Below are positions 1-9,753 of a stretch of 59,814 nucleotides of DNA, in pieces. This DNA comes from Cryomorphaceae bacterium (lineage in GTDB: Bacteria > Bacteroidota > Bacteroidia > Flavobacteriales > Schleiferiaceae). The notes beneath the pieces were generated by a model that was given only the letters and a program-made list of their open reading frames with translations, was not told the DNA's origin and made no database searches. The position numbers and the translations under genes were made by a program. The DNA lies in NCBI GenBank assembly GCA_021298655.1, contig JAJTFK010000010.1, positions 1-59,814 of the forward strand. The letters are read 5' to 3'. Positions within the stretch are counted from its first letter, which is position 1; every line of letters starts with the position of its first letter.

Positions 1-758
1 GGGGCGTCGTTGGTGATGTAGTGCAGGACGCAGGCGTTGGCGCCCGAACCAATAATGGGCGTGTAGGCAAATCCGTGGGACCGGCGGCGCACAAACTCGT
101 GAAGGAATTCCGCCTCGAGCTCGTACTCCCACACGCCGGGCTTGAGGAAGCGGAGCACGCGGTCGTAGCCGGCGGCGGTGATGTCGGCGGCCACCTGCAT
201 GATCTGGACTTCTTCGGGGTCCTTGACGGCGCGCAGCAGGTTCATCGCCGGTGCCGAGCGTTCGTATTCGTGGTTCGGGAAGCGGCGGCGCAGCTCAGCC
301 CCAAAGCGGTCTTCGCGGGTTTCGACCGGGTTATTTCGGCGAATGTGCTCGTGGTTGAGCAGGTAGACGTGGTGGGCGTGGGCCATGACGTCGCGCAGGA
401 TGCGCTCGAAGTCGCTCAGCCAGTGAATGCTCTGGATTCCGCTCAGGGCGCGGGCCTCGTCTTTGGAAAGCTTGGCGCCTTCCCAGCGGGCGATGAGGTC
501 GTTGGTTTCGACCAAAAACAGCATCTCGCGCTGCTCGGGCTTGGGGGCATCCGGAAAGAGCACCAGAATGGACTCCTCTTGGTCCACGCCACAGAGCCAC
601 AATAAGTCGGTGGCCTGCTTGAAGGGAAGGCTCCCGTCGGCCGAGGTCGGATAGATGTCGCTGGAGTTAAAAAAAGCGACGGAGTTCGGCTTAAGTGCTG
701 CCGTGAAGCGGGCCCGATGGCGGGCGTAGAGGTCCGATTTAAGGGGTTCGTAGCGCAT
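1..758 (-). CDS. pepP: Xaa-Pro aminopeptidase (aminopeptidase P), 5' part only
   Basis: The gene starts at the ATG at 758 and runs off the left edge, leaving about 252 codons. The protein begins MRYEPLKSDLYARHRARF. It carries the aminopeptidase P N-terminal domain (roughly residues 1-140) followed by the start of the pita-bread metallopeptidase fold, including LLRAVKDPEEVQIMQVAADI and GFAYTPIIGSGANA. The family removes N-terminal residues that precede proline, using a dinuclear metal centre; the metal ligands would lie in the missing part. A TACCTTCG element sits 5 nt before the start. It is divergent from sdhC. Function is well supported; the full length cannot be judged. Confidence 0.9.
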   Translation of the reverse strand, partial: MRYEPLKSDLYARHRARFTAALKPNSVAFFNSSDIYPTSADGSLPFKQATDLLWLCGVDQEESILVLFPDAPKPEQREMLFLVETNDLIARWEGAKLSKDEARALSGIQSIHWLSDFERILRDVMAHAHHVYLLNHEHIRRNNPVETREDRFGAELRRRFPNHEYERSAPAMNLLRAVKDPEEVQIMQVAADITAAGYDRVLRFLKPGVWEYELEAEFLHEFVRRRSHGFAYTPIIGSGANACVLHYITNDA

Positions 759-843: not shown

Positions 844-1518
844 ATGGCATCGCAACGCGGATTGTTTGGGTCGTCTCTGGCCCGCAAGTACTGGATGGCC
901 CTCACGGGCCTCTTTTTGATTACGTTCCTCGTTGTCCACCTGCTGGGCAACCTGGCCATCGTATTTGGCACCGGCGAAGACTTTAATGCCTACGCGGCGT
1001 TCATGACGAGCTTCCCGCCGATTAAAATCGTGAGCTACCTCCTGTATGCCTCGATTGTGCTCCACGCGGCCGACGGCATTGCGCTGGCCCGCCAGAACCG
1101 CGCGGCGCGTCCGGTCGCCTACGGAACCTACCACGGCGCAGCGAACGCGGGCTGGGCTTCGCGCAACATGGCCTTGCTCGGAATCTTCACCCTGCTGTTC
1201 ATCTTGGTGCACATGAAGAGCTTCTGGTACGAAATGCACTTCGGCAGCCTCGGCCTCGACGCCAACGGCAACAAGGACCTCTTTACCCTGACCACCGCTG
1301 CGTTTGAGCAGGTTTGGTACACGGCCTTTTATGTGGTGGCCATGTTGGCCCTTGGGTTTCACCTCTGGCACGGTTTCCAGTCGGCCTTTCAGACGATGGG
1401 CTGGACCCACCCGACCTACACCCCCATCGTTCAGTTCGTCGGCCGCGCCTTTGCGGTGGCGGTGTGCGGCGCCTTCGCCCTGATCCCCCTGTACGTTCTG
1501 ATTTCGCCCAACGTTTAA
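844..1518 (+). CDS. sdhC: Succinate dehydrogenase cytochrome b subunit
   Basis: This 224-residue membrane anchor of complex II carries electrons from the iron-sulfur subunit to menaquinone through haem b. It has five hydrophobic segments, as in the single-anchor Bacteroidetes/Wolinella type. Histidines in VVHLLGN, VLHAADG, LVHMK and FHLWHGF are likely haem ligands. I chose ATG 844 rather than the in-frame upstream codon at 757 because 844 follows the promoter at 791-821 and gives the usual MASQRGLFGSSLARKYWMAL N-terminus. sdhA follows after 12 nt, so sdhCAB form one operon. Confidence 0.93.
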   Translation: MASQRGLFGSSLARKYWMALTGLFLITFLVVHLLGNLAIVFGTGEDFNAYAAFMTSFPPIKIVSYLLYASIVLHAADGIALARQNRAARPVAYGTYHGAANAGWASRNMALLGIFTLLFILVHMKSFWYEMHFGSLGLDANGNKDLFTLTTAAFEQVWYTAFYVVAMLALGFHLWHGFQSAFQTMGWTHPTYTPIVQFVGRAFAVAVCGAFALIPLYVLISPNV

Positions 1519-1530
1519 GCGTGTTGTACC

Positions 1531-3540
1531 ATGTCAAGTAAATTGAATTCCCGCATTCCCGAGGGGCCCATTTCCGAAAAATGGACCAAGCACAAGGGCA
1601 CGATTCCGCTCGTGAGCCCGGCCAACAAGCGCCGTATTGACGTGATCGTGGTCGGTACCGGCCTGGCGGGCTCGTCGGCCGCCGCCTCCCTGGCGGAGTT
1701 GGGCTACAACGTCAAGGCCTTCTGCTTTCAGGATTCGCCGCGCCGCGCGCACTCCATTGCCGCACAGGGCGGAATCAACGCCGCCAAAAACTACCAAAAC
1801 GACGGGGACTCGGTATTCCGCCTGTTTTACGACACGGTCAAGGGCGGGGACTACCGCAGCCGCGAGGCCAACGTGCACCGCCTTGCCGAGGTTTCGGCCA
1901 GCATCATCGACCAGTGCGTGGCCCAAGGGGTTCCCTTTGCCCGCGACTACGGCGGCCTGCTCGACAACCGCTCTTTTGGCGGAGTTCAGGTGAGCCGCAC
2001 CTTCTACGCCAAGGGCCAAACCGGCCAGCAGCTGCTGCTCGGTGCCTATTCGGCCCTGGAACGCCAAGTGGCTAAGGGCCGCGTGAAAATGTACGCCCGC
2101 CACGAAATGGTCGACCTCGTCGTGGTCGACGGCAAGGCCCGCGGAATCATTGCGCGCAACCTGGTCACCGGCGAGCTGGAGCGCCACAGCGCCCACGCCG
2201 TGATTTTGGCCTCGGGCGGATACGGCAACGTGTTCTACCTGAGCACCAACGCCATGGGTTCCAACGTGACCGCCGCGTGGAAGGCCCACAAAAAGGGCGC
2301 CTTCTTTGCCAACCCCTGTTTTACGCAGATTCACCCGACCTGTATTCCGGTGAGCGGCGAATCGCAATCGAAATTGACCCTCATGTCGGAGTCCCTGCGC
2401 AACGACGGACGCATCTGGGTTCCGGCCAGCCTCGAGGACGCCAAGGCGATCCGCGAAGGCCGCTTGAAGCCAACCGACCTTCCCGAAGAAAAGCGCGACT
2501 ACTACCTCGAGCGCCGCTACCCGGCCTTTGGTAACCTGGTTCCGCGCGACGTGGCTTCGCGCGCCGCCAAGGAGCGCTGCGACGCGGGCTACGGTGTGAA
2601 CAAGACCGGCGAGGCCGTGTACCTCGACTTTTCGGCGGCCATCATGCGCTACGGCCAAGAGCAGGCCAACCTAAAGGGCATGCACCAGGCCTCCGAGGCC
2701 GAAATCCGCGCCCTGGGCACCAAGGTGGTGGAGTCCAAGTACGGCAACCTCTTCCAGATGTACGAGAAGATCACCGACGAGAATCCCTACGTAACCCCGA
2801 TGAAGATTTACCCCGCGGTACACTACACCATGGGCGGACTTTGGGTGGACTACAACCTCATGTCGACCGTACCGGGCTTGTTTGTGGCGGGCGAGGCCAA
2901 CTTCTCGGACCACGGCGCCAACCGCCTGGGTGCCTCGGCGCTGATGCAAGGCTTGGCCGACGGCTACTTTGTGCTGCCGTACACGGTTGGAACCTTTTTG
3001 GCGGACGACATCCGCACCGGAAGCATTTCCACTGACCTTCCCGAGTTTGCTGAGGCCGAAGCCGCAGCCAAGGCCCGCTTCGAAGGCTTCTTGAAGGCCA
3101 AGGGTTCGACGCCCGTGGAGGTGTTCCACCGCCGCTTGGGTAAAATCGTTTGGGATAAAATCGGCATGGCCCGCAACGAAGCCGGCCTGAAGCAGGCCAT
3201 CGAAGAAATCCGCGCCCTTCGCGAGGAATTCTACCGCGACGTCAAGGTCCTCGGCGGCATGTACGAAATGAACCCCGAGCTCGACAAGGCCAACCGCGTT
3301 GCCGACTTTATGGAACTTGCCGAACTCATGGCGCTCGACGCCCTGACGCGCAACGAATCCTGCGGCGGCCACTTCCGCGAGGAATACCAGTCCGAAGACG
3401 GCGAAGCCCTGCGCCAAGACGAAGAGTTTGCCTTTGTTTCGGCCTGGGAATTCACCGACAACGACCCCGGAAAAGCTACCCTTCACAAAGAAGATTTGGT
3501 GTTTGACAACGTTAAACTCGTAACACGCTCCTACAAGTAA
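1531..3540 (+). CDS. sdhA: Succinate dehydrogenase/fumarate reductase flavoprotein subunit
   Basis: This 669-residue catalytic subunit of complex II oxidises succinate to fumarate. The FAD-binding fold starts near residue 36 ([19 protein letters not shown]). His74 in [13 protein letters not shown] is the expected covalent FAD attachment site. A second FAD/substrate motif, [15 protein letters not shown], lies near residue 470. Length and sequence style match the Bacteroidetes fumarate reductase-like SdhA. The stop codon overlaps the sdhB start by one base (TAATG), which implies translational coupling. Nothing in this subunit looks damaged, unlike its partner sdhB. Confidence 0.97.
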
Positions 3541-4034
3541 TGAACCTCACGCTTAAAATCTGGCGCCAAAAGAACGCCCAAGACCAAGGCTCGTTTGCGA
3601 CCTACGCGGTGCGCGACATCTCGCCCGACATGTCCTTCCTCGAAATGATGGATGTGCTCAACGAGCAGCTCATTGCCCAGGGCGTGGAGCCGGTGGTTTT
3701 CGACCACGACTGCCGCGAAGGCATTTGCGGAATGTGCTCGATGTTCATCAACGGCGAGGCCCACGGCCCCGACCGCGGCGTAACCACCTGCCAGCTGCAC
3801 ATGCGCAAGTTCAAGGACGGCGACACGATCACCGTGGAGCCCTGGCGCGCCAAGGCCTTCCCCGTGGTGCGCGACCTGATGGTGGACCGCAGTGCCTTCG
3901 ACCGCGTCATTCAGGCGGGCGGCTACATTTCGGTCAACACGATGGGCAACCTGCCCGATGCCAACGCGACTCCGATCGAGAAGCACGACGCCGACGCCGC
4001 ATTTGACGCGGCGACCTGCATCGGCTGCAGGTGA
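3540..4034 (+). CDS. sdhB: Succinate dehydrogenase iron-sulfur subunit, truncated by an internal deletion
   Basis: This 164-codon reading frame is the front two thirds of SdhB. The [2Fe-2S] cysteines are present (C58, C63, C66 and C84, in [10 protein letters not shown] and TTCQ). It then reaches CIGC (C160, C163), the first half of the [4Fe-4S] ligand set, and stops after one more codon. Relatives continue for 19 more residues (usually GACVA.CKNGSAMLF.S.K) before [10 protein letters not shown], which here resumes in another frame at 4031. About 55 bp therefore appear to be missing between 4028 and 4029. Without them the protein would lack [4Fe-4S] and [3Fe-4S] cysteines and complex II could not work, so an assembly error is as likely as a real mutation. 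Confidence 0.9.
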
Positions 4035-4231
4035 GCCAATTCGCCCTGCTGCCCCAAGGCCAGGTTGAGGCCGCCGACCGGGTGCGCAACATGGTGCACC
4101 AAATGGACCTCGAGGGCTTTGGCAACTGCACCAACACGGGTGCCTGCGAAGTCGAGTGCCCCAAAGGCATTTCGATCGAGAACATTGCCCGCATGAACCG
4201 CGAATACCTCAAAGCCTCCATAACCGCCTAA
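4031..4231 (+). pseudogene. sdhB: Displaced C-terminal part of sdhB
   Basis: This frame encodes [19 protein letters not shown] followed by [18 protein letters not shown], the final cysteine cluster of SdhB that ligates the [3Fe-4S] and [4Fe-4S] centres. It is not an independent gene. It opens on a GTG that is normally an internal valine codon, has no promoter, and is the exact continuation of the frame that ends at 4034. Restoring about 55 bp at 4028/4029 would give a normal SdhB of about 249 residues. Confidence 0.88.
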
Positions 4232-4851: not shown

Positions 4852-7301
<2,450 letters not shown>

Positions 7302-7323
7302 GCTTCGCTTCACCGCACACAAA

Positions 7324-7356
7324 AAACCCCGGGCTCGCGCCCGGGGTTTCTTTTTT
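7324..7356. terminator. Strong terminator after gdhA
   Basis: AAACCCCGGGC (7324-7334) pairs perfectly with GCCCGGGGTTT (7339-7349), with T-rich sequence after it. It separates convergent gdhA and the beta-barrel gene. Confidence 0.85.
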
Positions 7357-7377
7357 AGGTCTGCCTTAACCTAGAAC

Positions 7378-8490
7378 CTAAAAGAGGCGAACGGTGGCGA
7401 AGACCGAGGCGTTGTAGAAATTGGGTTGGGAATCCAAGGAAATATTGGCCGGAAGCACCGCCTCGTTAAAGGGCTTATTGAAATTCTGGCGCACGCCCAC
7501 CGTGAACTGACGGAAGCCGAGCTCCGCCTGAAGACCGTAGGAAAGCAGCGAACCGTAGAACTGTCCGTTGGTGTTTTCGGTAACTCGGCCCATACCCGCT
7601 GCGCGGTAGACCACTTGGCGCGTACCTCCGAGGCGAATCCCCGCAAAACCACCCGCAGACAGGTTTAGTCCTTTGCCGCGGCGCGAAGGGTTGATCACAA
7701 ACGAAACGGGCACCTCGAAATAGGTCATGGAAAGATTTGATCGGCGCAAATCCACCGTGGACGGCGCGAGTGCGTAGCCACCGCCCGTAGGGGGATCAAG
7801 CTGCAAAATGTTCTGTCCAAAGTCGTATGTGTAGCTGGTAAAACCCCAACCGCTGCGCAACCACAACGGCGTCTTGTTGAGGCGCCACTGGTTGGTGAAG
7901 TGGAGCCCGAACGTGGCCGAATTCGCGCCGGCGGGATGCCAAAGACCCGAGTAGGGGTCGGCCGCTACAAGGTCGGTTGTCGGCGTCGTCAGCAGCGTAT
8001 TCGTTCCCACGAGCAAGACCAGGCCGTTGATTTTCTTCTTGAACTTCTTCTTTTTGGGCTCCGAAGGCTTAATGTTCAGGGTCAGGTCGTCCCCCAAATT
8101 GAGCTCGAGGTTCTCAATCGACTCCTCGAGGTTGTCTGCCCAAGCCTCGGCCATTTCTTCGATGGCTTCAAGGCGGGCTTCGAGGCGGTCTGAAAGCTCC
8201 TTGCGGCGGCGTTCGGCGTCTTCTTTAGAAATGTCTTTGTCCCGAATTTGCTTTTCGAGCGCAGCCATGTCCTTGGTGTATTCGCTTATGGCGGCGGCAA
8301 TTTCGGCGCTCATGCGGGCGGCACGGGACAGGGTGCTGTCGCTCCCTGAGGCTTTGCTGCTGTCGGACCCCGCGCGGACTTCGGCGGGGGGCGTCGGCAT
8401 GGCCGGCGGAGTGTCCTGGGCGCTAAGCTGCGGCGCAGCCGCAGCAAATACGGCACTTAGTGCAAGTGCTTTGATTGAAAAGTGGACCAT
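7378..8490 (-). CDS. Coiled-coil plus outer-membrane beta-barrel protein, sigma-factor operon
   Basis: A 370-residue secreted protein of unknown function. It has a signal peptide cleaved after about residue 24 (APQLSA-QDTPP), then a charged coiled-coil stretch at about 55-135 (KQIRDKDISKEDAERRRKEL), a lysine-rich linker (KKKKFKKK), and a C-terminal half of alternating strands ending in ASVFATVRLF. The terminal aromatic residue is typical of outer-membrane barrels (PorT/OMP_b-brl class). Its first 34 nt overlap the upstream gene, so it is the last gene of a sigma factor / membrane protein / barrel unit. The arrangement suggests it is a target or sensor partner of the sigma factor; that is inference. 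Confidence 0.8.
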   Translation of the reverse strand: MVHFSIKALALSAVFAAAAPQLSAQDTPPAMPTPPAEVRAGSDSSKASGSDSTLSRAARMSAEIAAAISEYTKDMAALEKQIRDKDISKEDAERRRKELSDRLEARLEAIEEMAEAWADNLEESIENLELNLGDDLTLNIKPSEPKKKKFKKKINGLVLLVGTNTLLTTPTTDLVAADPYSGLWHPAGANSATFGLHFTNQWRLNKTPLWLRSGWGFTSYTYDFGQNILQLDPPTGGGYALAPSTVDLRRSNLSMTYFEVPVSFVINPSRRGKGLNLSAGGFAGIRLGGTRQVVYRAAGMGRVTENTNGQFYGSLLSYGLQAELGFRQFTVGVRQNFNKPFNEAVLPANISLDSQPNFYNASVFATVRLF

Positions 8491-9179
8491 GATTCAGTGA
8501 GGTTTTCTGCCAGCTCTTTGGTTTGATTGATGCGCTGAAGCACGGCGGCTGGCACGTGCACTTCAACGATTACTTGGGGCGAAGCTTCCGACTCGCGCAG
8601 GCTGCGGACGGTCGACCATACGTCCTGAAGGTTGTTGGCTAACTCCGCGTAGCGTCGGCGCGGAGCCTCTGGGTGGATCGCGTAGGCTGCTGCTTCAGCC
8701 GGGCGCAATCGGGGCGGAATAAGCGGCACCCATTCCTCGGTTTCCACCGGACTCATGCGTTCCAGGAACGCCACGTCGGCGCGTGCGGATTCGAACTTGT
8801 TGGGCATCGGGCAGTCCAAGGCGTGAACGGATGGACCTGGGGAGCTCAACGGTTGCTGCGTCGCGGGCGCGGGAACGGGCGCCGGTTCCGTTTGAACTTC
8901 TGCCGACTCGGACGGCAGCGCGGCGACCGCCAATTGCGCCGCCGGCATGGCAGAGGACGGGATTTCAGGGCGCGCCCACCACCATGCTGCTGCAGCGAGG
9001 ACCACCGACGCGACCGCCGCATAGCGGTACCAAAGCACGCGACGCTTCGGCTTGGCTGGCGAGTTTGCGGGCTCGCTGGTCAAGCCCGCGGCCACGCGGG
9101 CCCAGGATTCGGGCCGCGGCTCCGCCCGGCCCTCACCGAGGGCATCGCGAAACAGCGTATCGAGGTCCTTCTGGCTCAT
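8457..9179 (-). CDS. Single-pass membrane protein, probable anti-sigma factor
   Basis: A 240-residue protein with a cytoplasmic N-terminus (MSQKDLDTLFRDALGEG and a following PESWARV), one membrane segment at about residues 50-67 (YAAVASVVLAAAAWWWA), then a proline/alanine-rich periplasmic region and a helical end. The LFR.AL...PRPESW start followed by a basic patch and one membrane helix resembles Bacteroidetes anti-sigma-like proteins, although no zinc (HxxxCxxC) anti-sigma motif is present. It overlaps the sigma factor stop (ATGA at 9176-9179), so the two are translationally coupled. The anti-sigma role is inferred from context. Confidence 0.72.
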   Translation of the reverse strand: MSQKDLDTLFRDALGEGRAEPRPESWARVAAGLTSEPANSPAKPKRRVLWYRYAAVASVVLAAAAWWWARPEIPSSAMPAAQLAVAALPSESAEVQTEPAPVPAPATQQPLSSPGPSVHALDCPMPNKFESARADVAFLERMSPVETEEWVPLIPPRLRPAEAAAYAIHPEAPRRRYAELANNLQDVWSTVRSLRESEASPQVIVEVHVPAAVLQRINQTKELAENLTESWSTFQSKHLH

Positions 9180-9633
9180 TGCACATTGAAGTTAGTGAGG
9201 CGGCGCTGCAGCCACTGCCGGGCTCGGCTCAATTGGGACTTGCTCGTGGCCTCGCTGATGCCGAGCTGCTCGGCGATCTCGGCATGGCTGTAGCCCTCGA
9301 TCGCATAAAGATTGAACACACTGCGGTAGCCCCCGCCTCGGGCAGGTCGGCCTCATCCAGACGTTCGGTCCTGCGCTTGCGCAGCTCCATGAGGCACTCG
9401 TTCACGGCCGTCCGGCGCAGCCAGGCCGGCAGGGCCTTGGGCTCGCGAATCGTCGGGAGTTGCTGGAACATGGTCGTCATCGTTCGTATCATGGCGTCTT
9501 CGGCGTCGGCTTCGTCGGCGAAGTAGCGTTTGCAGGTATGCAGCACACGGGGCGCAAGCGCTTCATAAAGAGCGCGCTGCGCATCCAATTGGCCGTGCAG
9601 CGAGCCATGAATGTGTGCGTACCAAGCTTCCAC
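9176..9633 (-). CDS. RNA polymerase sigma-70 family (ECF-like) sigma factor with an apparent frameshift
   Basis: Two frames together encode one sigma factor of about 152 residues. From the GTG at 9633 the first frame gives region 2: ALYEALAPRVLHTCKRYFA, DEADAEDAMIRTMTTMFQQL, and RRTAVNECLMELRKRR. At a run of five C (9330-9334 on the plus strand) the frame is lost. A second frame then reads GYRSVFNLYAIEGYSHAEIA and EQLGISEATSKSQLSRARQW (region 4 helix-turn-helix), stopping at 9176 in an ATGA overlap with the next gene. One extra base in the run restores LPEAGGYRSVFNLY. The correct overlap suggests the second frame is native, so a homopolymer error or very recent mutation is likely. Confidence 0.85.
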
Positions 9634-9753
9634 TAGATCGGGGCGGAATCCGCAAAAAAGATGCGCTTCCTAACACAAAGGTTGCATTGCCCCCCTAAAA
9701 TTGTGCGACCTTTACCTAAACACGCCCAGAAATAGCCCCAGAATTCCGCCTAG

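What the first reader, a model, noticed from the sequence alone, without database searches (positions are those of the whole stretch)
4015..4045. About 55 bp missing from sdhB, removing most of the [4Fe-4S] motif of complex II
SdhB stops one codon after CIGC, and the family continuation [10 protein letters not shown] resumes in another frame only 2 nt on. In relatives the two are separated by 19 residues (57 nt). The retained AG fits the Lys codon that normally precedes the VSQ, so the missing piece is close to 55 bp and not divisible by three. The junction makes CTGCAG. sdhA and sdhC are intact. A true loss would abolish complex II in what looks like an aerobic organism, so either the assembly collapsed a short stretch or this is a striking recent mutation.
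Basis: partly seen in the sequence, partly recalled or inferred. Interest (0 to 1): 0.6.

Follow-up and report, generated by a model that had tools for sequence, protein, structure and literature searches.

The report
Assembly gap inside sdhB
A respiratory-enzyme gene in this draft genome looks broken because 55 bases are absent at one point, but the same draft shows similar short losses and wrong gap lengths in other genes, so this is most likely an assembly fault and not a real mutation.

Summary
In detail: sdhB (from 3540) ends CIGCR-stop at 4034, and the rest of SdhB ([10 protein letters not shown]...) is intact in another frame from 4031. Against congeners the loss is exactly 55 nt at 4028|4029, with no shared bases at the junction in six of six. 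sdhC and sdhA are intact. In a 47% sample of the same draft I found four more frame-breaking losses of 35 to 167 nt in conserved genes, against none of 24 nt or more at the same threshold in a congener over the same compared length. One spans a run of N in dnaE that is 148 nt too short. Another, in glcD, lies at base 1 of a second contig. A further one (67 nt, sigma factor) is 5.3 kb from sdhB in the window. Both halves of sdhB are under purifying selection (3' part: 20 synonymous, 0 non-synonymous differences from L002), so a real loss would be very recent. The sdhB junction itself has no duplicate contig end, so only reads can close the case. Ordinary artefact; low interest.

The parts
844..1518 (+). 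sdhC, membrane subunit, intact (224 aa)
   Evidence: full-length match, 83-96% identity to the 224-226-aa protein in L113, L114, L116, L117, L118
1531..3540 (+). sdhA, flavoprotein subunit, intact (669 aa)
   Evidence: match without stops in congeners, over all 669 residues in the closest ones
3540..4034 (+). sdhB 5' piece, 164 aa, ends CIGCR*
   Evidence: residues 1-163 align to relatives
4028..4029 (+). junction at which 55 nt present in relatives are absent; no shared bases
4031..4231 (+). sdhB 3' piece (66 aa, [10 protein letters not shown]...), other frame, intact to its stop
   Evidence: 20 synonymous and 0 non-synonymous differences from L002
9179..9687 (-). second broken gene of the window: ECF-type sigma factor lacking 67 nt near 9331
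   Evidence: 155 nt between two anchors against 222 nt in three of three congeners; family by NCBIfam TIGR02937 on the congener's protein

Best explanation
The sdhB break is an artefact of the draft assembly. Two pieces of assembled sequence that lie 55 nt apart in the real genome were joined end to end, without the missing bases and without N. The gene in the living organism is most likely whole and complex II normal. Shown: the loss, its junction without shared bases, selection on both halves, other losses of the same kind in the same draft, one break at a contig edge, and N runs whose lengths differ from relatives by up to 148 nt. Inferred: that the sdhB junction arose in the same way. The program step (a join at a gap estimated as zero or negative) is also inference.
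For: 1) Frame-breaking losses of 24 nt or more in genes: 5 of 12 listed clusters in the sampled part of G000 (glcD 35, sdhB 55, sigma factor 67, dnaE 148 across N, TPR protein 167), 0 of 2 clusters in G020 by the same test, 365,800 and 366,930 bases covered. 2) The glcD junction C5:617|618, as the aligner places it (uncertain by about a base), is base 1 of contig C15, which repeats C5:398-617 at 219 of 220 positions. 3) dnaE (DNA polymerase III alpha) holds 63 N where G020 has 211 nt; C16 holds 79 N where seven of seven congener loci examined have 191 nt. 4) No shared bases at the sdhB junction in six of six congeners. 5) The 3' part has dN 0 against dS 0.69 to L002, the 5' part dN 0.012 against dS 0.49: no trace of decay. 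6) A single sdhB and sdhA match in a genome with a haem-copper oxidase subunit I, so a real loss would be costly.
Against: No reads were available. The sdhB, sigma-factor and TPR junctions have no second contig end in G000, so for them the case rests on analogy. A deletion present in only some strains could also make an assembler stop at its edge, so the glcD coincidence is strong but not proof. The third N run (C12, 33 N) errs the other way: flanks overlap by 9 nt in seven of seven congener loci examined. The glcD, TPR and dnaE losses were sized against G020 alone. 5 against 0 is a small count; one lower-identity, probably intergenic case would make it 5 against 1 (see Tried and rejected).
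Confidence: 0.91

Rival explanations
1. A real and very recent 55-nt deletion has inactivated sdhB in the sampled population, so that complex II is absent.
For: The window holds no N and the flanks read cleanly. No duplicate contig end exists at this junction.
Against: Four other frame-breaking losses in the sampled part of the same draft, one across an N run in dnaE and one at a contig edge. No shared bases at the junction, whereas slippage-type deletions usually have short repeats (recalled). No decay of either half.
Confidence: 0.04
2. Strain mixture: some cells carry the deletion and the assembler chose that path.
For: C5 and C15 differ by one base in their 220-position overlap and diverge beyond it, which could be strain variation; a fork between strains would also put a contig edge at a junction.
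Against: It needs several damaging deletions at high frequency in one draft, and does not explain N runs of the wrong length.
Confidence: 0.04
3. The two pieces are made as separate polypeptides or joined by frameshifting, giving a split SdhB. The GTG of the second overlaps the TGA of the first.
For: GTGA overlap at 4031-4034.
Against: Two cluster cysteines and 18-19 residues would still be missing; the 15 relatives translated have them in one frame.
Confidence: 0.005

Closest known systems
Succinate dehydrogenase/fumarate reductase iron-sulfur subunit (NCBIfam NF005746, PRK07570; PDB 9lay chain B)
   Same: Both pieces of the window gene match the intact congener protein L118:8315-9058, which scores 437.9 bits to NF005746 (cut-off 243) and E 7e-114 to 9lay_B.
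   Different: The window copy lacks 55 nt and is split over two frames.
Spurious pseudogenes made by assembly (Cooley and Wright 2024, PMC11017572; abstract and outline seen)
   Same: Conserved genes appear broken in an assembly through errors of assembly.
   Different: The abstract speaks of frameshifts and internal stops in general; here the breaks are losses of 35 to 167 nt, one at a contig edge.
Negative or mis-sized scaffold gaps (Meraculous, PMC3158087; passages seen)
   Same: Gaps between contigs can be estimated as negative although the contigs were not joined in the graph.
   Different: That program closes such gaps with reads and reports 97% within 4 bp of the estimate; which assembler made this draft is unknown.

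Membership tests
SdhB (NF005746) | one continuous frame of about 248 aa with three Fe-S cluster motifs | tested here: not met
   164-aa frame plus 66-aa frame; two motif cysteines absent
SdhB (NF005746) | sequence of the two pieces matches the family | tested here: met
   5' piece 95% and 98%, 3' piece 98.5% and 98.5% identical to SdhB of G020 and G017 (L113, L118); the G017 protein passes the family cut-off. The pieces themselves were not scanned.
SdhB (NF005746) | operon with sdhC and sdhA | tested here: met
   844-1518, 1531-3540, 3540 on
assembly join artefact | other losses of the same kind in the same draft, absent from a control | tested here: met
   5 against 0; small numbers
assembly join artefact | junction coincides with a contig edge | tested here: inconclusive
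   met for glcD; not seen for sdhB, sigma factor, TPR
assembly join artefact | reads disagree with the junction | not testable with these tools
   no reads held
old pseudogene | relaxed selection on both pieces | tested here: not met
   dN far below dS in both pieces against L002-L007

The most novel reading that the evidence does not exclude
A Bacteroidota population with a haem-copper oxidase has just lost complex II by a 55-nt deletion without flanking repeats in sdhB and lives with a broken citric acid cycle.
Probability: 0.04. Interest if true: 0.45.

Novelty: not a real feature. Interest (0 to 1): 0.07.

Why it matters
It keeps a doubtful gene loss out of metabolic reconstructions of this species. 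It also shows a cheap check: a break in a vital gene is suspect when the same draft has similar breaks and wrong gap lengths elsewhere, even when no N is printed at the break.

Tried and rejected
Constant-length idea: 55 equals a common last k-mer of metaSPAdes (recalled), so I looked for other losses of exactly 55 nt. The others are 35, 67, 148 and 167, so a fixed k-mer trim is not supported.

Backup complex II: none found; one sdhB and one sdhA match in G000 at E 0.001 or better.

Rows set aside: one search read no loci (wrong file pattern) and was rerun. One search was a first, smaller census, repeated on the larger sample as (60% identity; 68%, all ORFs). One search listed a -35 shift in C6 that on DNA alignment lies in a poorly aligned stretch and was dropped. 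It also listed a +167 and a matching -167 shift between C1 (L184) and G020 (L113), at about 64% identity over the longer part; the place, L113:7444-7470, is at the end of a gene on the other strand (6153-7448), so it is probably an intergenic length difference. I did not resolve it, and it fell below the threshold; if counted, it would be one loss in the control. In-frame gaps of 8 residues or more: 8 rows in G000, 3 in G020, not used. One search missed the sigma factor because my ORF filter had kept an antisense ORF. One search was too permissive (132 events one way; output cut) and was discarded. The other 7 clusters in G000 and both in G020 are shifts of one base; I did not sort them into real indels and overlaps of neighbouring genes, except an apparent one-base loss in an amylase-like gene.

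Structure prediction was not run: it could not tell artefact from mutation.

Full report
What is there. The window is contig C40 of a 1.60-Mb draft in 45 contigs, 97% complete. The succinate dehydrogenase operon reads sdhC 844-1518, sdhA 1531-3540, sdhB from 3540. The sdhB frame ends CIGCR-stop at 4034. The rest of the protein is open in another frame, 4031-4231. The 15 relatives translated have 19 residues between CIGC and VSQ. BLASTN aligns 692 window bases with 747 in five relatives, so exactly 55 nt are absent at 4028|4029. No base is shared between the junction and either end of the missing piece in six of six congeners.

Distribution. Of 60 genomes searched (G000 among them), 53 have an sdhB match; apart from G000 (172 aa) and G004 (59 aa) the open frames there are 249 to 319 aa. 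G004 has only the first 50 codons, at a contig end. Of 22 genomes of the genus, G000 included, 20 have sdhA. G003 and G007 have neither gene, and G014 has only part of sdhA; these are drafts of 170, 170 and 360 contigs. No second genome of the same species was found in what I searched.

Selection. Against the closest relative (L002) the 5' piece has 38.5 synonymous and 4.5 non-synonymous differences, and the 3' piece 20 and 0. The gene was under selection as a whole until very recently, or still is.

Other breaks in the same draft. Comparing the window with congeners showed a second lesion, a sigma-factor gene on the minus strand near 9331 lacking 67 nt against three of three congeners. I then sampled 749,903 nt of this draft, the window included, and 854,689 nt of congener G020 and asked for gene matches that change frame or lose 24 nt or more. 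One search gave 12 clusters in G000 and 2 in G020 over about 366 kb each; losses of 24 nt or more were 5 and 0. They are glcD 35, sdhB 55, sigma factor 67, dnaE 148 and a TPR protein 167. The identity threshold was 68% for both parts; one unresolved lower-identity case that could count in the control is told under Tried and rejected.

Why these look like joins. dnaE, the replicative polymerase subunit by NCBIfam, has a run of 63 N where G020 has 211 nt. C16 has 79 N where seven of seven congener loci examined have 191 nt, and C12 has 33 N where the flanks should overlap by 9 nt. So the three N runs in the sample have lengths that differ from the relatives by -148, -112 and +42 nt. At the glcD break, C5:617|618, contig C15 starts at the first base beyond the junction as the aligner places it and repeats 219 of 220 positions. 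A join of contigs predicts this; a deletion carried by some strains could also make an assembler stop there, so it is strong but not proof. In addition C1's end repeats window 1-114 exactly, and C2 and C17 share 42 nt at their starts in opposite orientation, so pieces that overlap were left apart. For sdhB, the sigma factor and the TPR gene no second contig end was found.

Reading. The simplest account of the five breaks is one fault of the assembly: neighbouring pieces set end to end at the wrong distance, in dnaE with N, in the other four without. Which program did so is unknown. Under this account complex II is whole in the organism.

Known context. That assembly makes false pseudogenes is documented (PMC11017572, abstract and outline seen), and scaffold gaps can be estimated as negative (PMC3158087, passages seen). 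Both came from two paper searches. Nothing here is novel biology.

Limits. Reads are not held. Three of the five losses were sized against a single congener. About half of the draft was not compared. The sdhB junction is judged by its company.

Noticed in passing
window 9179-9687 (-): ECF-type sigma factor gene lacks 67 nt near 9331 and is split over two frames; three congeners examined are intact.
   Followed up: yes
window 1-114: Identical to the last 114 nt of contig C1 (L184:12573-12686): two contigs of the draft overlap but were not merged.
   Followed up: partly
L138:9903-9965 (G000:C14): Run of 63 N inside dnaE, 148 nt too short against G020.
   Followed up: yes
L193:10710-15059 (G020): DNA polymerase III alpha carries an N-terminal exonuclease (epsilon-like) domain in one 1450-aa protein.
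   Followed up: no
L129:1-391 (G000:C5): The first 391 nt of C5, beyond the stretch shared with C15, matched none of the four G020 stretches tested, although C15 goes on matching there: a further wrong join or strain variation.
   Followed up: partly
L182:10301-10325 (G000:C11): Amylase-like gene with an apparent one-base loss against G020.
   Followed up: partly
L167:7116-7132 (G000:C3): TPR-type protein (NCBIfam matches to YbgF and BamD models, below cut-off to PorW/SprE) lacks about 167 nt against G020.
   Followed up: partly
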